The position numbers and the translations under genes were made by a program. From Agromyces sp. H17E-10 (GTDB lineage Bacteria; Actinomycetota; Actinomycetes; Actinomycetales; Microbacteriaceae): a stretch of 64,000 nt of DNA. Each line of letters starts with the position of its first letter. Positions within the stretch are counted from its first letter, which is position 1. Shown piece by piece: positions 48,651 to 57,087 of the stretch. A model generated the notes under the pieces. That model saw only the letters and a list, made by a program, of their open reading frames with translations, made no database searches and had not been told where the DNA came from. The stretch spans positions 682,001 through 746,000 of the forward strand of contig NZ_CP095042.1 in assembly GCF_022919715.1 (NCBI RefSeq), in the 5' to 3' direction.

Positions 48651-49767
48651 ATCTCAGCTCCACACTGACATTCTCCCGCGTCGAGACCGATTCGGCACCC
48701 AACGCCACAGCGCGAGCCACGGCGACGAAACGATCGAGTTCACGCTTCGCGGGCGGACGCCCCGACGGATCGGCCACGATGCGGATCAGCCCGCCGCCCG
48801 GCTCGGGTGCGAACGACACGCCGACGCGCTCGGAACGACCGGTCTCGGCGAGCCAGGTGATGAGAGCGGTCAGTGCCGAGCGCTGGTCGTCGCCGAGCAG
48901 GTCGGCGGCGCCCGTGGGGTCGTCGACGAACGTCTCGACACCGCGGCTCACCCGCAGATTCGCGGCGAGGTCGTCGAGCCAGGTCGACTCGATACCGGCG
49001 CGCAGCGCCCGGCGCAGCTCCTCCGCGAGCTCGCGGGCGCGGTCGGCGTCGGCGACCGAGATGCGTTCGGCGGTCATCACGCCCGCGAGGAACGGCAGCA
49101 CCTCACGACCGAGCACCGAGACCCGGCTCTGCTGCACCGACCGCGCGATGCCGGCGCGCAGCTCGGCGTCGCGCTGGAGCGCGGCCCGGTTCGCCTCGCG
49201 CTGCCACGCGAGCGTCTCGGCGATGATCGCGTAGGCGTAGCCCGCCGCGGCGGCTGTGAGGGCGATGACCGGAGCCGCGTTGATCGCGATGAGCGCCGCG
49301 ACCGGGGCGTCGGCGAGCACGTACGCCGAGGCTCCGACCACGAGGATGGACAGCACGATCGAGGCGAGCACCCCGGCGAGCGCGAGCGAGAGCCAGGTGC
49401 AGAACGGCGCGACCGAGAGGATCAGCATGCCGATCACGACCGGACCGAAGTCGTCGTAGAGGTACTGGTTCGAGCCGACCGTGCTCATGTACTCGGCGAT
49501 CGCCGCGCCGACCGCGAGCGTCACCACGAGCCACAGCCGCTCCGCGGTGAACGGCGCACGCGACGGGGCCGCGGAGATCGCGGCGACCACGCCCGCGGCG
49601 GCGACGAGCACGATCGATGCGATCGCGGCGGCGGGCGCGACGATCTCGGCTCGGTGCACCCAGGTGAGCGCGAGCGAGGTTCCGAACGAGAGCACGGCCC
49701 CGATGACGACGATCGGGGCGGCCGTGATGGCGCCGATCGGGTCGGCCTCCTGCTGGGTCAACCGCAT
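48637..49767 (-). CDS. Membrane protein, degenerate sensor kinase partner
   Basis: A 376-residue protein. Eight or so hydrophobic stretches fill residues 12-195, then a coiled region (LQRDAELRAGIARSVQQSRVSVLGREVLPFLAGVM) and a C-terminal domain that resembles a HATPase fold in size (to RENVSVELRYVIE) but lacks recognisable N, G1 and G2 boxes; the DxGxG motif is missing. No His box of HisKA type is visible. It probably modulates the kinase encoded just upstream or senses a signal. Start ATG 49767 after a GGGGGTG stretch. Confidence 0.7.
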   Translation of the reverse strand: MRLTQQEADPIGAITAAPIVVIGAVLSFGTSLALTWVHRAEIVAPAAAIASIVLVAAAGVVAAISAAPSRAPFTAERLWLVVTLAVGAAIAEYMSTVGSNQYLYDDFGPVVIGMLILSVAPFCTWLSLALAGVLASIVLSILVVGASAYVLADAPVAALIAINAAPVIALTAAAAGYAYAIIAETLAWQREANRAALQRDAELRAGIARSVQQSRVSVLGREVLPFLAGVMTAERISVADADRARELAEELRRALRAGIESTWLDDLAANLRVSRGVETFVDDPTGAADLLGDDQRSALTALITWLAETGRSERVGVSFAPEPGGGLIRIVADPSGRPPAKRELDRFVAVARAVALGAESVSTRENVSVELRYVIE

Positions 49768-49771
49768 CGGT

Positions 49772-51181
49772 TCACGCACCCCCTTCGGGGACCGTGAGCA
49801 CGATCGTGGTGCCGATGCCCTTCGTGGACCACAGGCGGACCGTGCCCTCCTGCTGCTCGATCCGGGCACGGATCGAGGTGCGCAGCCCGATGCGGTCGTC
49901 GGGCACGGCCGACTCGTCGAAGCCGACGCCGCTGTCCATGACGGCGACGGTCACCTCGCCGCCGCCGAGGCCGAGCGCGAGCTCGGCCTCGCCGACGCCC
50001 GCGTGACGGGCCACGTTGATGAGGCACTGGGCGACCGCGGCGTCGAGCGCTTCGGCGCGCGCCGGCCCGAGCACGTGCATCACCCCGACATCACCCGTGA
50101 CGCGCACCGTGAGCCCGGCGTGCTCGGCGGCGGTGAACGCCTGTGCGAGCGGCGGACCACCGTTCGACATCGGCAGCGGATCGGCCGCTCCCCTGGCCGG
50201 GCCCGCTCCGGCGGAGCCGTGGGCCGTCGAGCGTCGCGTGGCACCCCGCCGGCGGGCCCGGCCCGCGCTCGTCGCGAGCGTGTCGTCGACCGCGGCGGAC
50301 TCGCCCGCGCCGGCGGCGGTCGTCGCGGCGGCGGTCGTCGCGACCGTGCTGCCGCGCGACGTCGATGGCGATTGTGCGCCCGAGCGTTGTGCGGGCGCGG
50401 TTCTCGTGGCGGGACCGGCGTGATCGATCGCCCAGTCGCGACCGACGATGAGGCCGAGATCCTGTCGGATCCCCGCACGCAGCCGCTCGTCGACGGCGCC
50501 CGACCCGGCGGCGGCGATCGCGATGAGGTGGCTGAGGGCGGTGTCGTGCAGTCGCGCCGTCGCTCGCAGCTCGTAGTCGTGTCGGATGGCGAGCTCGCGG
50601 GTCTGCTGGCTCGCCCGGTGCAGTCCCGTCTCCTGACGTGCGTCGGAGCGGCGGGAGACCCCGTCGAAGACCCGCACGACGAGGAGGATGCCGAACGCGG
50701 CGGCCGCCGCGGTGTTCGTCGCGTACACCCCGCCGGCGAGCGCGACCCCGAGGAACATCGCCGCCTCGCCCAGTGCGTAGCCGAGCGTCGCCCAGACGAT
50801 CGCGATGAGCGAACCGCTGCCTGCACCGCCGACGAGCAGCAGGGCGATGCGCGGGAGCGCGAGCAGGGCGTTGTTCGTGGATTCGAACCCGCCCGGGCGC
50901 ATGATGAGCACGGTGAGCGCGAGGACGACGCCCGTGCCGACGACGAGTGCGAGCACGGTCAGCGTGACCGTCGGGAATCGTGCGACCGCGGCGAGCGCGA
51001 GCACCATGACGCCCGACAATGCGGCGCCCGCCCATCCGCCCGACGCCCCGCCGATGGTCGCGACGATGATGCCGACGGCGATCGAGACGGCGAGGCAGGC
51101 GAACGCGGCGCAATGGCCCGCGAAGGCGAGTGCGCGGCTCAGGCTGTCGCGTGCGAGGTGCCCCGGCAACCCCAGGCTCAT
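49772..51181 (-). CDS. Membrane sensor histidine kinase (NarL-type partner)
   Basis: A 469-residue kinase. Residues 15-165 carry about six membrane helices, followed by a linker (ASQQTRELAIRHDYELRATARLHDTALSHLIAIA) where LHDTALSHL is the probable phospho-His region. A Ser/Thr/Ala-rich disordered insert of about 90 residues separates this from the ATPase domain with AVAQCLINVARHA (N box), VMDSGVGFD (G1) and GLRTSIRARIEQQEGTVRLWS...GIGTTIVLTVP. It is first in the operon and likely phosphorylates the 47973 regulator. Confidence 0.82.
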   Translation of the reverse strand: MSLGLPGHLARDSLSRALAFAGHCAAFACLAVSIAVGIIVATIGGASGGWAGAALSGVMVLALAAVARFPTVTLTVLALVVGTGVVLALTVLIMRPGGFESTNNALLALPRIALLLVGGAGSGSLIAIVWATLGYALGEAAMFLGVALAGGVYATNTAAAAAFGILLVVRVFDGVSRRSDARQETGLHRASQQTRELAIRHDYELRATARLHDTALSHLIAIAAAGSGAVDERLRAGIRQDLGLIVGRDWAIDHAGPATRTAPAQRSGAQSPSTSRGSTVATTAAATTAAGAGESAAVDDTLATSAGRARRRGATRRSTAHGSAGAGPARGAADPLPMSNGGPPLAQAFTAAEHAGLTVRVTGDVGVMHVLGPARAEALDAAVAQCLINVARHAGVGEAELALGLGGGEVTVAVMDSGVGFDESAVPDDRIGLRTSIRARIEQQEGTVRLWSTKGIGTTIVLTVPEGGA

Positions 51182-51312
51182 CGTGAACCTCCACCACTCG
51201 CGACGCCGGCCCGATCGGTCATGTGGATCGGGCTCAGCGAATTATCCCAGTTCTGCGCCGTTCCGCGCATCCGGGCCGCTTCATGATCGGCTTCGAGCAG
51301 TCGCTCGAAACC

Positions 51313-53439
51313 TCAGAACAGCATCCCGGGGTCGCTCGGCGCGGCGATGTCGAGCGGCAGCTCGGCGCCGGATCGCTGCTGCGCCGCACGTCGGCCGCCG
51401 CGCAGCGCGGTGGAGCGCACGCCACCCGTGACCGGGTCTTCGGTGCCGCGGGCGAGTCCGTGCGCCCTGATCAGCGGCTGCATGCGCTGACCGAGCCAGC
51501 GCCGGTACTCCTTCGGTGCGTAGGCGTTGCCGCCGTAGTACATCGACCGGTACTTCGGCACGAGCTCGGGGTGTTCGCGCTCGAGCCAGTGCATGAACCA
51601 GGGTTTCACCGCCCCGCGCAGGTGGAGTGCGGTGTACAGCACGCTCGTCGCGCCGGCCGCCTTGGCCTGTCGGAGCGCCTCGTCGAGGTGCGCCTTGGAG
51701 TCGGTGAGGTACGGCAGGATCGGCATGAGGAAGACCGCGCAGTCGAGGCCGGCGTCGCGCACCGCGGTCACCGTCGCGAGCCGTGCCTTGGTCGACGGCG
51801 TGCCCGGCTCGATCGACTGCTGCAGCTCGGGGTCGTAGATCGCGATCGACATCGCGAGGTCGACCGGCACGTGCTCGGCGGCCGCGGCGATCTTCGGCAG
51901 GTCGCGCCGCAGCAGCGTGCCCTTCGTCAGCACGCTGAACGGCGTGCCGCTCGCCGTGAGCTCGTCGACGATGCCGGGCATGAGCGCGTAACGCCCCTCT
52001 GCGCGCTGGTACGGGTCGGTGTTCGTGCCGAGCGCGACCGGTTCATGCCGCCACGACGGGCGCGCGAGCTCTTTGCGCAGCACCTCGGCGACGTTCACCT
52101 TGACGATGATCTGCCGGTCGAAGTCGTCGCCCGCGTCGAGGTCGAGATAGCTGTGGGTCGGTCGGGCGAAGCAGTTGTGGCTGACCACGCCGTTCGCGAT
52201 GAAGTCGCCCGTAGACGTCGTGATGTCGAGCATGTCGAGGGTCGCGCCGAGCGGCTCGATCGCGACCACGCGGAGGTCGCCCAAGGTCTTCACAGTGGTG
52301 CCGGCGAACGCGAGCTTACGGCTGATCGCCGGCTGGCTGACGGCGAAGAACGCGTTGCGCGCGCTGAGCCCGCCCCGTACCCGAACGCTCGAGACACCGT
52401 TCTCCCGCTGCCCCTCGCGCACATAGTCGATGCGGAACCGGCTCAACGCCGCCTCGATCGCACAGAGGATCGTCTCGTCGGAGTTCGAAATACGGAGCGC
52501 CCCGCGTGAACACGAACCTTCCGCGTCGAAGATGCCGCCGAGATATCCGGCGTCCCACTCCTCGGTCGACTGTTTCGGCCACTCGACCAAGGCAGTGATC
52601 GCGTCGAAATCGCGGGCCCTCGACGTTCGGATCGCGGTCATCTCGCGACGGCGTGCTGTCGCGGCCGAGAACTGGAACGTGGACGTCGGAACGCCGAAGG
52701 ATTCCAAGTACTGACGTGTTCTGTCCAACGCCTCCTCATCGGCAAGAGCCAGCCTGAAACGATGCGCGACGTACGAACCACCGGTCGAACGTGCATACGT
52801 GCGTCGAAGCATCATCGCGTCTCCGCGGATCATGCCGGTGAGATAGCCGCGACGATAATCTTCAGACGTCGAAGGCGGGAACGGCACTGCCCTTCCGCCA
52901 CCGAACCCGACGAGCGAGTTGTTCGTCGTGAGATATGGACGCTGTGACGCACCCTGCATCGCGCCCGTCACGTGCTTCCAACCACGCTCGGTGAGGAATC
53001 GATGGTCCCCGCTGGCGATGATCTCCGTGCCGTCTGCGAGGCGAACGCGGTAGGCCGCCTTGCGTGACGACCATTTCGCCAGCACCTTCGCCTGAACATA
53101 CGTGCGATACCGACCGATCGCCCTCGTGCCCATCACCTCGTCGCCGATCTGAATCTCGGCGAGCGACTTCGTACGTCCGTCGGCCATCGTGATCGCCGTA
53201 GACGGATCCAGGCAGTAGACACACGCGTGGCTGCAGCCCCGGTAGGGGTTGATGGTCCACCCGAAGGGCATCATCGACTGGCCGGGCACCCGGTTGAGTG
53301 CCGACTTCGCGAGCACCTCGTGGAAGGTCATGCCGGCGAACTCGGGCGTCTGCACCGAACGCACGAGGTTGTTGAGCCGGGCGAGGCCGGGCAGGGCGTC
53401 GACCTGGTCGACGCCCAGCTCCTGCCCGCTCCATCTCAC
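51313..53439 (-). CDS. Intein-containing Rv2578c-family radical SAM protein
   Basis: A 708-residue precursor giving a 361-residue mature protein after splicing. The radical SAM motif is NPYRGCSHACVYC (CxxxCxxC), continuing FARPTHSYLDLD; other extein parts are LGTNTDPYQRAEGRYALMPG and MPILPYLTD, typical of the SplB-like Rv2578c family. The third cluster Cys is also the residue at the splice junction. GTG 53439 (RWSGQELGVDQ) is chosen by similarity to family starts; a GGAGGA lies very close to it. A LexA-like box is at 53448-53463. In mycobacteria Rv2578c is DNA-damage inducible. The biochemical role is unknown. Confidence 0.92.
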   Translation of the reverse strand: MRWSGQELGVDQVDALPGLARLNNLVRSVQTPEFAGMTFHEVLAKSALNRVPGQSMMPFGWTINPYRGCSHACVYCLDPSTAITMADGRTKSLAEIQIGDEVMGTRAIGRYRTYVQAKVLAKWSSRKAAYRVRLADGTEIIASGDHRFLTERGWKHVTGAMQGASQRPYLTTNNSLVGFGGGRAVPFPPSTSEDYRRGYLTGMIRGDAMMLRRTYARSTGGSYVAHRFRLALADEEALDRTRQYLESFGVPTSTFQFSAATARRREMTAIRTSRARDFDAITALVEWPKQSTEEWDAGYLGGIFDAEGSCSRGALRISNSDETILCAIEAALSRFRIDYVREGQRENGVSSVRVRGGLSARNAFFAVSQPAISRKLAFAGTTVKTLGDLRVVAIEPLGATLDMLDITTSTGDFIANGVVSHNCFARPTHSYLDLDAGDDFDRQIIVKVNVAEVLRKELARPSWRHEPVALGTNTDPYQRAEGRYALMPGIVDELTASGTPFSVLTKGTLLRRDLPKIAAAAEHVPVDLAMSIAIYDPELQQSIEPGTPSTKARLATVTAVRDAGLDCAVFLMPILPYLTDSKAHLDEALRQAKAAGATSVLYTALHLRGAVKPWFMHWLEREHPELVPKYRSMYYGGNAYAPKEYRRWLGQRMQPLIRAHGLARGTEDPVTGGVRSTALRGGRRAAQQRSGAELPLDIAAPSDPGMLF
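52174..53214 (-). other. Intein with LAGLIDADG homing endonuclease
   Basis: A 347-residue in-frame insert. It begins with Cys1 (CLDPSTAITMADG, block A), has GDHRFLT (block B, His71), and ends DFIANGVVSHN (blocks F/G) followed by the extein Cys. Two DOD motifs, GYLTGMIRGDA (about 123-133) and GYLGGIFDAEG (223-233), keep acidic residues, so the endonuclease may be active. Codon usage is less GC-biased than the flanks (for example ATA, AAA, TTA-type codons), consistent with mobility. Excision restores CVYC-FARP, completing the FeS motif. Confidence 0.95.
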
Positions 53440-53447
53440 TCCTCCAT

Positions 53448-53463
53448 TCGAACATACATTCGA
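53448..53463. promoter_or_regulatory. LexA/SOS-box-like site
   Basis: TCGAACATACATTCGA differs by one base from the actinobacterial SOS pattern TCGAAC-N4-GTTCGA. It lies 8 nt before the GTG of the radical SAM gene, where repression would be effective. Confidence 0.6.
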
Positions 53464-53496
53464 ATCTGGTGCAAGCGCCCGGCATGGGGCGGACGC

Positions 53497-53531
53497 GGAT
53501 GCCTCGGGGTCGCGCCGACCCCGAGGCATCC
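53497..53531 (-). terminator. Terminator of the ABC-F gene
   Basis: Perfect 16-bp stem (53497-53512 with 53516-53531), 3-nt loop, just after the ABC-F stop. It contains GGATGCCTCGG. Confidence 0.85.
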
Positions 53532-53535
53532 CGGG

Positions 53536-55326
53536 TCAGGTCGCCGCAGTTGCCGGAACCGCCGCACCCGAGTGGAGCTCGAGATGCTCCCCCGCCCATC
53601 GCCGGCGCAGCCAGCGGTCGTGACTGGCGATGACGACGGCGCCGGGATAGCCGCCGAGCGCCTCCTCGAGGTCGGTCGCGAGCGCGAGCGACAGGTGGTT
53701 CGTCGGCTCGTCGAGCAGGAACACGTGCGGCGGCCGGGCGATCACGAGCGCGAGCGCGAGCCGGCGCTGCTGCCCGACCGAGAGCGCCCCCACCGGTCGG
53801 TCGAGGTCCCGCAGCGCGATCAGCCCCAGGCCCGAGAGCGGCACCTGCTCGGCGCGTCGCTCGCCGAGCACCCGCGCGTACAGCTCCCGCGGCGTCGCAC
53901 CGGGGTCGGCGAACCGCACGTCCTGCTCGAGCAGCTGCACGCGCAGACCCTTGCGTCGCCGCAGCGTGCCGCGGTCGGGCTCGAGCTCGCCCGCGAGCAC
54001 ACCGAGCAGCGTCGACTTGCCCGCACCGTTCGCGCCCGTGACGAGGAGCCGGGCGAGCGGGGCGAGGTTCAGCTCGTCGATGCGCAGCCGACCCTCGACG
54101 ACGACGTCGCCGAGCTGCAGGAGCGAACCCGCCTCCTCCTCGAGCGCGTGCGAACCCGTCGGGATGCCCGCGAACGCCAGCGGCGTCGGCGGTTTCGGCA
54201 GCTGCTCGCGCTCGAGGACCTCGAGCCGCTGCTCGGCGTTGCGCACCCGGCGCGACACGGTGCGGGCGACGTTCTCGCCCTTGAAGTGCCGGATGAACTT
54301 GTCGTTGTCGGTCGCGGCCCGACCGTAGGCCACGTTGCGCGCCGTCTCGGCGACCGCCGCGCGGAGACGCTTCAGCTCCTCCTGCTCGTCGTCGTACTGA
54401 TGCTGCCAGCGGGTGCGCTCGTCGGCCTTGACCGCGAGGAACTCGCTGAACCCGCCGCCGAACACCGTGCCGCCCGACGCGCTGAGGACGTCGCCGCGGT
54501 TCACGTTGCGACGGCCCGCGCCGTCCCGTCCGTTGCCGCCGGCGGCCGCGTGCGCCGCCGCGATGGCCCCCTGCCGCCCCGGGTCGAGGTCGATGAGTCC
54601 GGTCGCCACACGGTCGAGGAACGCCCGGTCGTGGCTCGCGAAGAGCACCGGCCCGCCCCAGGCGCGCAGTCGCGACTCGAGGAAGTCGGCCGCGTCGTCG
54701 TCGAGGTGGTTCGTCGGTTCGTCGAGGAGCAATGCCTCGGGCGACGAGAGCAGGAGCGCGGCCAGGGCGAACCGCGACCGCTGCCCGCCGGAGAGCTCGT
54801 CGATGCGACGGTCGAGGCCGAGGCCAGCGACCCCGAGCCCCTCGAGCAGTTCGTCGCGGCGAGCCTCGGCCGTCCAGACCTCGGCACGCTCGGCGGCGTC
54901 GAGCGCCGCCGCGTACCGCGACGAGGCGGCCTCGCCGTCGGCGTCGACCTCACCGCCGAGCGCCTCGGCGGCGGCGTCGAGCTCGCGCTCGATCGCCCGC
55001 ACCTCGGCGAGTGCGGCCTCGAGCACGAGACCCACCCGCTCGTCGGGCGCGAACGGCACCTCCTGCTCGAGGAGCCGCGTGCGGCGCGGCCTCGTCACCC
55101 GGCCCGCGACGGATGCCGCGTCGGGGAGACCCGCGGATGCGGCATCCGTGTCGGTGGAGAGGAGGCGCAGGAGCGTGGACTTGCCAGCTCCGTTCTCGCC
55201 GATGAGGCCGACCCGCTGTCCCGGTGCGACCGTGAAGCCGAGGTCGGAGAAGATGCGTCGGTCGGGGAAGGAGACCGACAGTCCGTCGGCCCGGAGATGA
55301 TTCGAGAAGGAAAGCTGTACCGGCAT
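53536..55326 (-). CDS. ABC-F family ATP-binding protein
   Basis: A 596-residue soluble twin-ATPase that likely acts on ribosomes. Domain 1: LIGENGAGKSTLLRLL, signature LSGGQRSRFALAALLL, LLLDEPTNHL. Domain 2: VTGANGAGKSTLLGVL, signature LSVGQQRRLALALVIA, FLLDEPTNHL. The inter-domain linker is about 100 residues with charged helices (RTRWQHQYDDEQEELKRLRAAV). Members give antibiotic resistance or tune translation; which is not decidable here. ATG 55326 is chosen; the frame extends 45 codons upstream but the start of homology is QLSFSNHLRADGLSV. A large hairpin lies upstream. Confidence 0.9.
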   Translation of the reverse strand: MPVQLSFSNHLRADGLSVSFPDRRIFSDLGFTVAPGQRVGLIGENGAGKSTLLRLLSTDTDAASAGLPDAASVAGRVTRPRRTRLLEQEVPFAPDERVGLVLEAALAEVRAIERELDAAAEALGGEVDADGEAASSRYAAALDAAERAEVWTAEARRDELLEGLGVAGLGLDRRIDELSGGQRSRFALAALLLSSPEALLLDEPTNHLDDDAADFLESRLRAWGGPVLFASHDRAFLDRVATGLIDLDPGRQGAIAAAHAAAGGNGRDGAGRRNVNRGDVLSASGGTVFGGGFSEFLAVKADERTRWQHQYDDEQEELKRLRAAVAETARNVAYGRAATDNDKFIRHFKGENVARTVSRRVRNAEQRLEVLEREQLPKPPTPLAFAGIPTGSHALEEEAGSLLQLGDVVVEGRLRIDELNLAPLARLLVTGANGAGKSTLLGVLAGELEPDRGTLRRRKGLRVQLLEQDVRFADPGATPRELYARVLGERRAEQVPLSGLGLIALRDLDRPVGALSVGQQRRLALALVIARPPHVFLLDEPTNHLSLALATDLEEALGGYPGAVVIASHDRWLRRRWAGEHLELHSGAAVPATAAT

Positions 55327-55351
55327 ATGGGACCGCCATTCGCGGAAGGCC

Positions 55352-55399
55352 CCGAACGGTCGCCGGTCGTCGTGAAGCGCGAGCGCGACGACCGTTCGG
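55352..55399 (-). promoter_or_regulatory. Leader hairpin before the ABC-F gene
   Basis: CCGAACGGTCG (55352-55362) and its complement (55389-55399) form an 11-bp stem with a 26-nt loop, 25 nt before the ATG. ABC-F resistance genes are often attenuator-controlled, so this may be regulatory. The rest of 55400-55608 shows no gene. Confidence 0.45.
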
Positions 55400-55608
55400 A
55401 GGCGAAGAGGATTCCCGCCGGGCGTTGCCGTGATGGGTGCGCCGGTCGCGTCGATCGGCACGGCGCCGCGCCGATCAGCTGGAGTTCGTCAACTCCGCGA
55501 GCACACCCGACGTCAACGGCGCCTCAGGCGCGGGACGATGGGTCGTACTCACTTCATAGTGTTGACGACCGTAGCAGACGATCGCGCGGGCGCGCAAGCA
55601 GCCGAGGC

Positions 55609-57087
55609 TCAGGCGGTGAGCCCCAGCACGTCGGCCGTCGCCTTCAGCGACGCCTCGGCGGCGACCGGGTCGTCGGAGAGCGTCGTGCCGTAGCTCGGGA
55701 TCATCTCGCGCAGCTTGGGCTCCCACTCGGCCATGCGGTCGGGGAAGCAGCGGCCGAGCAGGTCGAGCATGATCGGCGCGGCCGTCGAGGCGCCGGGCGA
55801 CGCACCGAGCAGGCCCGCGATCGTGCCGTCGGCCCCCGTGATGACCTCGGTGCCGAACTGCAGCACGCCGCCCTTCTGCGGGTCCTTCTTCATGACCTGC
55901 ACGCGCTGGCCGGCCGTGATGAGCTCCCAGTCGCCGGTCTTCGCCGTGGGCATGAACTCGCGAAGCGCCTTCATCTTCTTCTCGCGGTTCGCCATGAGCT
56001 CGCCGACGAGGTACTTCACGAGGTCGAAGTTCTTGAGACCGACCTGGATCATCGGCCAGAGGTTGTGCAGGCGGACCGAGAACGGCAGGTCGAACCACGT
56101 GCTCGTCTTCAGGAACTTGGGCGTGAAGCCGGCGTACGGGCCGAACAACAGCGCGGTCTCGCCGTCGACGACGCGGGTGTCGAGGTGCGGCACCGACATG
56201 GGCGGCGCGCCGACCGCCGCCTTGCCGTACACCTTCGCCTGGTGCTGGGCGACGATCTTCGGGTCGGTCGTGCGGAGGAACTGGCCCGAGATCGGGAAGC
56301 CGCCGAAGCCCTTGATCTCGGGGATGCCGGAGTGCTGGAGCAGCGCGAGCGCACCGCCGCCGGCCCCGACGAACACGAAGCGCGCGCGCACCATCTTCGG
56401 GGTGTTGCCGACCGTGTGCCGCAGCCGCAGCTTCCACGTTCCGTCCTTCTGGCGCTTGAGCCAGGTGACCTGGTGGTTCGTCTGGATCGACGCACCCCGC
56501 GAGGACATGTCCTCCATGAGGTACTTCGTGAGCGCGCCGAAGTCGACGTCGGTGCCCGCCTCGATGCGGGTCGCGGCCACGCGGGCCTTCGGGTTGCGCT
56601 TCTTCGCGAGCAGCGGCGTCCACTCGGCGATGCGCTCGAGGTCTTCGGTGTACTCGAGGTCGGGGAAGAGCGGCTGGTCTTTCAGGGCGGCGACGCGCTT
56701 GCGCAGGTATTCGATGTTCGCCGAGCCGCGCACGAAGGTCATGTGCGGCGTCGAGTTGATGAAGTTGTGCGGCTCGGGCAGCGCGCCCTGGGCGACGAGG
56801 TAGGCCCAGTACTGGCGGCTGATCTGGAACTGCTCGTTGATCGAGACGGCCTTCGCGGCGCTCACGGTGCCGTCGGGATTCTCGGGCATGTAGTTGAGCT
56901 CGCAGAGGGCGGCGTGACCCGTGCCCGCGTTGTTCCACGCGTTCGACGACTCCTGTGCGACCTCGCCGAGGCGTTCGTAGAGGCGGATCGTCCAATCGGG
57001 CTGGAGCTGGGAGATCAGGGAGCCGAGCGTGGCGCTCATGATGCCCCCGCCGATCAGCACGACGTCGACGGTTTCCTCTGAATTCAC
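55609..57087 (-). CDS. mqo: Malate:quinone oxidoreductase
   Basis: A 492-residue membrane-associated FAD enzyme oxidising malate to oxaloacetate and passing electrons to quinone. The FAD motif is DVVLIGGGIMSATLGSLI; further conserved segments are ESSNAWNNAGTGHAALCELNY, GFGGFPISGQFLR and GLLGASPGASTAAPIML near the end. The length matches Corynebacterium Mqo. Start GTG 57087 has TAGACT 7 nt upstream and no Shine-Dalgarno, so it is probably leaderless. Monocistronic. Confidence 0.96.
   Translation of the reverse strand: MNSEETVDVVLIGGGIMSATLGSLISQLQPDWTIRLYERLGEVAQESSNAWNNAGTGHAALCELNYMPENPDGTVSAAKAVSINEQFQISRQYWAYLVAQGALPEPHNFINSTPHMTFVRGSANIEYLRKRVAALKDQPLFPDLEYTEDLERIAEWTPLLAKKRNPKARVAATRIEAGTDVDFGALTKYLMEDMSSRGASIQTNHQVTWLKRQKDGTWKLRLRHTVGNTPKMVRARFVFVGAGGGALALLQHSGIPEIKGFGGFPISGQFLRTTDPKIVAQHQAKVYGKAAVGAPPMSVPHLDTRVVDGETALLFGPYAGFTPKFLKTSTWFDLPFSVRLHNLWPMIQVGLKNFDLVKYLVGELMANREKKMKALREFMPTAKTGDWELITAGQRVQVMKKDPQKGGVLQFGTEVITGADGTIAGLLGASPGASTAAPIMLDLLGRCFPDRMAEWEPKLREMIPSYGTTLSDDPVAAEASLKATADVLGLTA

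What the first reader, a model, noticed from the sequence alone, without database searches (positions are those of the whole stretch)
52174..53214. Intein splits the FeS Cys motif of an Rv2578c radical SAM protein
Seen: a 347-residue in-frame element with Cys1, His71, HN terminus and two LAGLIDADG motifs sits exactly before the third Cys of CxxxCxxC. Known: inteins at cluster Cys residues can be redox- or metal-sensitive. Inference: the enzyme stays off until splicing, so splicing could act as a post-translational switch.
Basis: partly seen in the sequence, partly recalled or inferred. Interest (0 to 1): 0.7.

Follow-up and report, generated by a model that had tools for sequence, protein, structure and literature searches.

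The report
Intein inside a radical-enzyme iron-sulfur motif
A soil actinobacterium's radical SAM enzyme is interrupted by what looks like a self-splicing, mobile protein insert placed exactly before its third iron-binding cysteine; this arrangement is already catalogued for the enzyme family, but related inserts sit at the same cysteine in several other radical SAM-type families, including in phages.

Summary
A 347-aa intein (52174-53214) lies in a 708-aa Rv2578c-family radical SAM precursor, exactly before the third Cys of GCSHACVY|C. It belongs to a catalogued family, NCBIfam NF038136 (784 bits, cut-off 700). Inactivity before splicing is a sound inference; a physiological switch is not shown. 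A close precedent exists: the Pyrococcus abyssi MoaA intein has a native Cys-3/Cys1 disulfide that blocks splicing (review passages).

In the window's genus 21 of 59 hosts carry the intein (window included, one host undetermined). On the host tree presence needs 17 changes, as many as shuffled labels, while intein sequences mostly follow the host. That suggests inheritance with repeated loss and some transfer, not a fixed control device.

Beyond the finding, intein-only searches place relatives at the same third Cys of other radical SAM-type proteins (QueE, DUF5131, DUF1848, SPASM) in phages and bacteria: 16 of 16 complete viral frames and 37 of 37 genomes with strong matches in a 396-genome phylum sample.

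The parts
51313..53439 (-). Intein-containing Rv2578c-family radical SAM precursor, 708 aa from GTG (open frame runs up to an ATG at 53529)
   Evidence: NF038136 784 bits, NF038135 501 bits; start chosen by length of homologue P0001, 708 aa
53215..53439 (-). N-extein, 75 aa, ends ...WTINPYRGCSHACVY
53233..53235 (-). First cluster Cys (C-7)
   Evidence: the Cys motif was found in 162 of 162 rows
53221..53223 (-). Second cluster Cys (C-3), candidate disulfide partner of Cys1
   Evidence: precedent
52174..53214 (-). Intein, 347 aa (Hint splicing domain plus LAGLIDADG endonuclease)
53212..53214 (-). Intein Cys1; in the precursor it occupies the third position of CxxxCxxC
   Evidence: invariant in A1, 28 rows
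53002..53004 (-). Block B His71
   Evidence: invariant in A1
52342..52860 (-). LAGLIDADG homing endonuclease domain (intein residues about 119-291)
   Evidence: Profile match to I-DmoI, 2.7e-8; fold match to I-DmoI, TMt up to about 0.78
52816..52845 (-). LAGLIDADG motif 1 YLTGMIRGDA with Asp132
52516..52542 (-). LAGLIDADG motif 2 LGGIFDAEG with Glu232
52174..52179 (-). His346-Asn347, C-terminal splice junction
52171..52173 (-). Cys+1, third cluster ligand of the mature enzyme (ligand role inferred from the motif)
51316..52173 (-). C-extein, 286 aa, with the part of the radical SAM domain that Pfam matches
   Evidence: PF04055 at open-frame residues 482-612

Best explanation
A bifunctional, Cys1/Cys+1 mobile intein of the catalogued Rv2578c radical SAM intein family. 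Steps inferred from family knowledge: after translation the Hint domain removes itself (acyl shift at Cys1, transfer to Cys+1, Asn347 cyclisation) and leaves a 361-aa enzyme whose CxxxCxxC cluster motif is whole again; the LAGLIDADG domain cuts intein-free alleles at the codons of that motif, so the element persists by homing. Shown here: the anatomy, the exact site, empty sites in relatives, low dN/dS in the endonuclease part, endonuclease-less mini-inteins in several relatives, and scattered presence within one genus. Wider claim: the intein belongs to a set of related inteins whose niche is the third cluster cysteine of radical SAM-type enzymes. That residue can hardly be changed without losing the enzyme, which would make it a durable homing site. 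Redox control, if any, would be a by-product of that site.
For: NF038136 784 bits. One match to this intein in the genome (the Pfam intein model also finds only this one, but below its cut-off, so it is not sensitive). The 38 intein loci kept from the family and phylum scans, window included, have C1, HN and Cys+1 at the same place. Of 80 genome-contig loci 78 do so, and there the motif position equals an independent tblastn match start. Empty sites are continuous. dN/dS is low where it could be computed: Hint 0.06-0.29 (26 of 30 pairs), endonuclease 0.09-0.39 (23 of 30). 105 of 108 full-length inteins passed my pattern for both catalytic acids; one of the three failures, L095, still has the Asp. 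Genus: 21 of 59 hosts, 17 changes on the host tree of 56 alleles. For inteins the host topology is far better than 8 shuffled ones (deltaL 114 against 760-990) but is rejected by the AU test (p 7e-8), though not by the SH test (p 0.09): mostly inherited, some transfer. Cross-family site: 16 of 16 complete viral frames found with an intein-only profile, hosts; phylum sample 37 of 37 genomes with E below 1e-15 (sites; for G517 only the N junction was seen).
Against: No splicing or cleavage was measured. One lineage for all radical SAM inteins is not proven: 31 against 8 outgroup inteins, support 74 only, with long branches. Scans used endonuclease motifs and kept only the best hits (80 of 294), so relatives in other hosts may be missed. 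Two of 18 viral hits are endonuclease-only frames without a splicing domain. Two of the 16 complete viral frames (L142, L145, both cut short) have no host-domain match, and in L141, L152 and L153 the Radical_SAM match is below Pfam's cut-off. In 26 of 28 non-identical pairs the intein's Hint part is more diverged at synonymous sites than the host, so recent transfer is shown for two pairs at most.
Confidence: 0.88

Rival explanations
1. Physiological redox switch: Cys-3 and Cys1 form a disulfide under oxidising conditions, splicing stops, and the oxygen-sensitive enzyme is made only when conditions are reducing.
For: Cys-3 and Cys1 are both present here and the motif was found in 162 of 162 rows. 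P. abyssi MoaA has a native Cys-3/Cys1 disulfide that controls its intein (review passages; that MoaA is a radical SAM enzyme is recalled).
Against: Cys-3 is fixed by the enzyme and Cys1 by the intein, so their pairing is automatic and no sign of selection. Presence is scattered within the genus and 36 of 56 alleles in the tree do without it. Natural Ser1 versions exist (L086; L188). Geometry was not measured: coordinates were not at hand and residues 84-87 and 439-454 beside the two junctions have pLDDT under 50.
Confidence: 0.2
2. Cluster- or metal-gated splicing: in the precursor Cys1 completes CxxxCxxC, so an Fe-S cluster or Zn can bind at C-7, C-3 and C1 and mask the nucleophile; splicing runs when the site is empty and hands the position to Cys+1.
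For: The completed motif is visible in the precursor sequence and in related inteins of other radical SAM-type families. Zinc reversibly inhibits splicing of a mycobacterial DnaB intein (title and a passage of PMC7360933).
Against: It follows automatically from putting a Cys1 intein before a Cys ligand. The rest of the radical SAM fold is interrupted, so a stable cluster in the precursor is doubtful. The Ser1 relatives lack the third ligand in the precursor. No measurement.
Confidence: 0.1
3. The cross-family pattern is convergence: unrelated inteins reached the third Cys independently because it is a most conserved site, rather than one lineage spreading among radical SAM genes.
For: Inteins favour conserved sites in general (abstract of PMC2814812). 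The uniting branch has support 74 only.
Against: The pattern came from similarity searches with intein-only profiles: the strong hits were radical SAM-type hosts, while inteins whose flanks I read as RNR, DnaB, UvrD and DnaE matched only weakly or in part.
Confidence: 0.3
4. Dead insert: the intein no longer splices and the gene is broken.
For: One congener, G568, has its intein-bearing gene in two reading frames.
Against: The window copy keeps the splice residues and an open frame of 738 aa; Hint dN/dS is low in relatives.
Confidence: 0.03

Closest known systems
NCBIfam NF038136, intein-containing Rv2578c family radical SAM protein
   Same: Host, insertion region and intein; 784 bits, model positions 1-573 of 574
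   Different: The window intein (347 aa) is longer than the model's implied insert (574 against 317 positions, about 257), perhaps because endonuclease columns are partly missing from the model; it is a further member
Pyrococcus abyssi MoaA intein (Callahan et al. 2011; paper not held; known here from passages of two reviews)
   Same: Cys-3 in the N-extein and catalytic Cys1, with a reported disulfide between them that blocks splicing; MoaA is a radical SAM enzyme (recalled)
   Different: Archaeal, other enzyme; its sequence was not seen here, so common descent is untested. That its +1 residue is the third cluster Cys is inferred from the Cys-3 spacing
Inteins of QueE (L156, L188), DUF5131 (L148, L154, L187, P0174), DUF1848 (L149), SPASM (L150, L152, L155) and PA0069 (P0167, P0209, P0270) proteins
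   Same: Intein at the third cluster-type Cys, similar LAGLIDADG endonuclease, lengths 316-351 aa where cut
   Different: Other host families; 22-45% identical to the window intein in the 16 complete viral cases. That DUF5131 and DUF1848 are radical SAM relatives is my reading of their motif, not a tool result
M. tuberculosis SufB intein
   Same: Iron-sulfur cluster assembly protein as host; a His at -5 helps splicing there (passages of PMC8891592), and -5 is His here too
   Different: Other host and site. The His at -5 here goes with the enzyme: 115 of 116 carriers and 20 of 20 intein-free alleles have it

Membership tests
Intein (class 1) | In-frame insert with Cys/Ser1, block B His, C-terminal His-Asn and Cys/Ser/Thr+1 | tested here: met
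   C1, H71, H346-N347, C+1
Intein (class 1) | Removal leaves a continuous conserved host protein | tested here: met
   20 of 20 intein-free loci read CxxxCxxCFAR without a gap; congeners G079 and G142
Intein (class 1) | Self-excision with ligation of exteins | not testable with these tools
   Needs expression
NF038136 intein-containing Rv2578c radical SAM protein | Whole-protein score over 700 bits | tested here: met
   784.4 bits
LAGLIDADG homing endonuclease intein | Two LAGLIDADG motifs with an acidic residue each | tested here: met
   Asp132 and Glu232
LAGLIDADG homing endonuclease intein | Cuts the intein-free allele | not testable with these tools
   Indirect only: low dN/dS in relatives
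Redox-controlled intein of the MoaA type | Cys-3 in the N-extein and Cys1 | tested here: met
   motif found in 162 of 162 rows
Redox-controlled intein of the MoaA type | Cys-3/Cys1 disulfide that stops splicing | not testable with these tools
   Model coordinates not at hand; junction residues have low confidence
Single lineage of radical SAM third-Cys inteins | Such inteins form one clade apart from other inteins | tested here: inconclusive
   31 rows on one side of a branch against 8 others, support 74, long branches

The most novel reading that the evidence does not exclude
One intein lineage has specialised on the radical SAM iron-sulfur motif itself: it has moved among several radical SAM families, bacteria, an archaeon and phages, settling before the third cluster cysteine. 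Because its own Cys1 completes CxxxCxxC in the precursor, cluster, metal or disulfide at that site gates splicing, so maturation of many radical SAM enzymes would be coupled to redox or iron state by the same element.
Probability: 0.12. Interest if true: 0.8.

Novelty: new member of a known kind. Interest (0 to 1): 0.47.

Why it matters
The window element itself is ordinary for its family. What it opens is wider: related inteins sit at the same cluster cysteine in several radical SAM-type families of bacteria and phages, and in a protein labelled archaeal, next to a published redox-sensitive case (MoaA). That makes a general question testable: is conditional splicing at an iron-sulfur ligand a used control, or an unavoidable chemical by-product of a durable homing site? 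A single genus with 21 carriers among 59 hosts offers matched alleles for the test.

Tried and rejected
Plus-strand reading of the gene: stops, rejected. A second intein in the genome: none found with this intein as query or with PF14890, whose only hit is this intein below the cut-off, so other divergent inteins are not excluded. A solved structure of a close intein: only gp41-1, DnaB-type and generic homing endonuclease or intein matches. Measuring Cys-3 to Cys1 distance: a model was obtained (pLDDT 80.8, pTM 0.53), but no coordinates were at hand and the junctions are low-confidence, so no claim. A known catalytic-RNA family around the endonuclease-only frames L157 and L158: no Rfam match at gathering score. 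A survey of another phylum: not possible, the centre must be a G handle. Papers: no hit for intein with Rv2578c or with DUF5131. The lists for intein with radical SAM, MoaA, SufB, QueE, 7-carboxy-7-deazaguanine and related words show no title or abstract start about radical SAM third-Cys inteins; three were seen only in part (20 of 57, 20 of 134, 15 of 75), one search also matched unrelated words beginning with those letters, most listed papers were not opened, and the library lacks most subscription journals. Circularity: looked for sites with patterns that contain the Cys motif, and one search took the first such motif as the start; searches compare with match starts from intein-only searches and are the independent ones. 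One search was seeded with whole precursors and is biased to radical SAM hosts.

Full report
What is there. The open frame is on the minus strand. It runs 53529 to 51313 and is 738 aa; the GTG at 53439 gives 708 aa, the length of the nearest homologue P0001. Residues 106-452 of the frame are a 347-aa intein (nt 53214 to 52174) with C1, H71, H346-N347 and Cys+1. Pfam finds Radical_SAM and LAGLIDADG_3 over their cut-offs and two intein-type models below theirs. NCBIfam gives NF038136, 'intein-containing Rv2578c family radical SAM protein', 784 bits. The intein has 64.0% G+C, the two flanking coding parts 67.6 and 70.8%, the window 71.0%. It is the only match to itself in the 4.25-Mb genome. Neighbours on the same strand are an HATPase-type protein (49772-51181) and an ABC-F-like ATPase (53536-55461) (the name ABC-F is my reading).

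The host organism. The nearest named homologues are Agromyces, a genus of Microbacteriaceae (recalled). G557, a member of the window's genus, has its gene at coordinates that fit locus L061 of Agromyces sp. S2-1-8, so the genus is Agromyces by inference.

The site. The insert splits GCSHACVY|C immediately before the third cluster Cys. Of 162 rows (161 proteins listed, which each list the best 120 of over 7500, plus the window) the Cys motif was found in 162 and the end in 161; those 161 end in HN followed by Cys. The 38 intein loci kept from the family and phylum scans agree, and so do 78 of 80 genome-contig loci (the best 80 of 294; these sets overlap). The two exceptions are L086, with Ser at position 1 but HN and Cys+1 in place, and L114, whose frame is broken near the start of the intein. 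Intein-free hosts read straight through (20 of 20), and two congeners show the empty site at DNA level.

How common. In a family sample 12 of 150 genomes passed the NF038136 cut-off, with 106 of 150 showing any match at E 0.001. In a phylum sample of 396 genomes I count 35 with an Rv2578c-type intein (27 in one piece, 8 in two, checked). Seven of these are mini-inteins of 150-154 aa and three are 288-312 aa. In the window's genus 59 of 60 genomes have the host; 20 pass the cut-off, window included, and G568 has the gene in two frames, so 21 of 59; one, G590, is only partly covered and undetermined. Five congeners have mini-inteins of 154-196 aa.

How it behaves in evolution. On a tree of 56 congeneric host proteins (20 with, 36 without; L286 dropped as misparsed, G568 and G590 not in it) presence needs 17 changes, 14 forced by well-supported branches; shuffled labels average 16.7. 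Yet the intein tree repeats several host pairs: window/L239, L243/L248, L246/L251, L241/L252, L234/L237. L233 is discordant. Identities of host and intein correlate (Spearman 0.64). The host topology fits the inteins far better than 8 shuffled topologies; the AU test rejects it (p 7e-8), the SH test does not (p 0.09). I read this as inheritance with many losses, several endonuclease deletions and some transfer; regaining from close relatives cannot be told apart from loss. At phylum scale presence is clustered, not scattered (7 changes against 16.8 shuffled, in 58 best-hit loci). There the intein tree largely follows host families (12 changes, the least possible 11; the window's family is one clade, 99), but four families (f9, f15, f41, f47) are split, and congeners L037 and L038 have hosts 90% and inteins 58% identical. 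For dN/dS 30 pairs were tried: two are identical, others have saturated synonymous sites; where computable, Hint is 0.06-0.29 and endonuclease 0.09-0.39, by a simple count method. In two pairs (L105/L115, L095/L103) synonymous divergence is lower in the intein than in the host gene, as expected after recent transfer; in the other 26 non-identical pairs the Hint part is more diverged than the host.

Beyond this enzyme. An intein-only profile (A1, 28 inteins, no host residues) found 18 relatives in viral contigs. Sixteen have complete inteins, of which L150 and L151 are the same. In all sixteen the match starts where the third Cys of a cluster-type motif would stand, with Cys at -3 and another at -7 or, in L148 and L154, at -10, and the intein is followed by Cys (15 distinct inteins). 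Hosts by Pfam and NCBIfam: QueE (L156, TIGR03365 221 bits, cut-off 206), DUF5131 (L148, L154), DUF1848 (L149, motif at the end of that domain), radical SAM with SPASM (L150, L152, L155), PA0069/Rv2578c-like (L141, L144) and further radical SAM proteins. Some of these matches are below the curated cut-offs, and L142 and L145, both cut short, have no host-domain match. L141 lies beside portal and terminase genes and L147 beside a portal gene, so these two are clear phage contexts. In the phylum sample an intein-only profile (A2, 14 viral and 3 Rv2578c-type inteins) gave 42 of 396 genomes at E 1e-10, 37 of them below 1e-15: the 35 above, a DUF5131-type protein (G360, L187; host read from its sequence) and a QueE (G247, L188, TIGR03365 309 bits, intein with Ser1). 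The remaining matches are weak or partial; by my reading of their flanks those inspected are RNR, DnaB, UvrD and DnaE inteins or Hint stretches, not checked against a family library. A search seeded with whole precursors, so biased to radical SAM hosts, listed 118 further proteins: 115 were parsed, 114 with Cys+1 and one read as Gln, which I did not inspect. They include a protein named DUF5131 of a Bathyarchaeia MAG (P0174) and PA0069 proteins of a Betaproteobacterium, a Tepidisphaeraceae and a Usitatibacter MAG. On a tree of 39 inteins those of QueE pair together (85) and those of DUF5131/DUF1848 group together (98); all 31 radical SAM-type inteins fall on one side of the 8 others, but with support 74 only and long branches.

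Mechanism. Shown: anatomy, site, empty alleles, selection on the insert in relatives, scattered presence in the genus. Inferred from family knowledge: splicing chemistry, homing, and inactivity of the precursor. The redox switch has a direct precedent: two reviews report that the P. abyssi MoaA intein forms a Cys-3/Cys1 disulfide that blocks splicing (passages of PMC10663303 and PMC3922620; the original was not held). The window precursor has the same two cysteines. It also keeps a full CxxxCxxC because Cys1 stands in for the third ligand, so metal or cluster binding at the nucleophile is conceivable. Both features follow automatically from putting a Cys1 intein before a ligand Cys, so their conservation is no evidence of use. 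The general rule that inteins prefer conserved sites, which slows their loss (abstract of PMC2814812), is enough to explain the position.

Verdict. The finding is real and correctly described apart from the strand, and already catalogued at family level. The switch remains a hypothesis. The more interesting result is the shared third-Cys site of related inteins across radical SAM-type families; in the limited paper searches listed under Tried and rejected I saw no report of it.

Noticed in passing
L158:4974-6000 (viral contig): A free-standing LAGLIDADG endonuclease frame starting MNRTKIEWAD, related to the endonuclease of this intein, sits directly upstream of a frame that reads like an intein-free DUF5131 protein (MNKSKIEWCNFSWNP..., my reading) and resembles its first residues. 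L157 has a similar endonuclease frame; no second KIEW start was found in its 10.5 kb.
   Followed up: partly
L188 (G247:C4, about 84300-85300) and L086: Natural inteins of this group with Ser instead of Cys at position 1, in a QueE and in a Cryobacterium Rv2578c protein; useful controls for any redox test.
   Followed up: partly
L110: A contig titled Stenotrophomonas maltophilia P13 carries a typical actinobacterial Rv2578c intein gene; contamination or mislabelling seems likely.
   Followed up: no
L247, L289 (G568:C1:93254-95241): A congener whose intein-bearing gene is split over two reading frames of 404 and 521 aa in a single-contig genome; the host protein may be lost there or the sequence may hold an error.
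   Followed up: no
G577:C2:926592-927305: A second, weaker intein-free Rv2578c-type match in one congener (302 bits).
   Followed up: no
window 49481-51286 and 53227-57081, plus strand: Long plus-strand open frames lie opposite the likely real minus-strand genes; they look like by-products of high G+C content.
   Followed up: no
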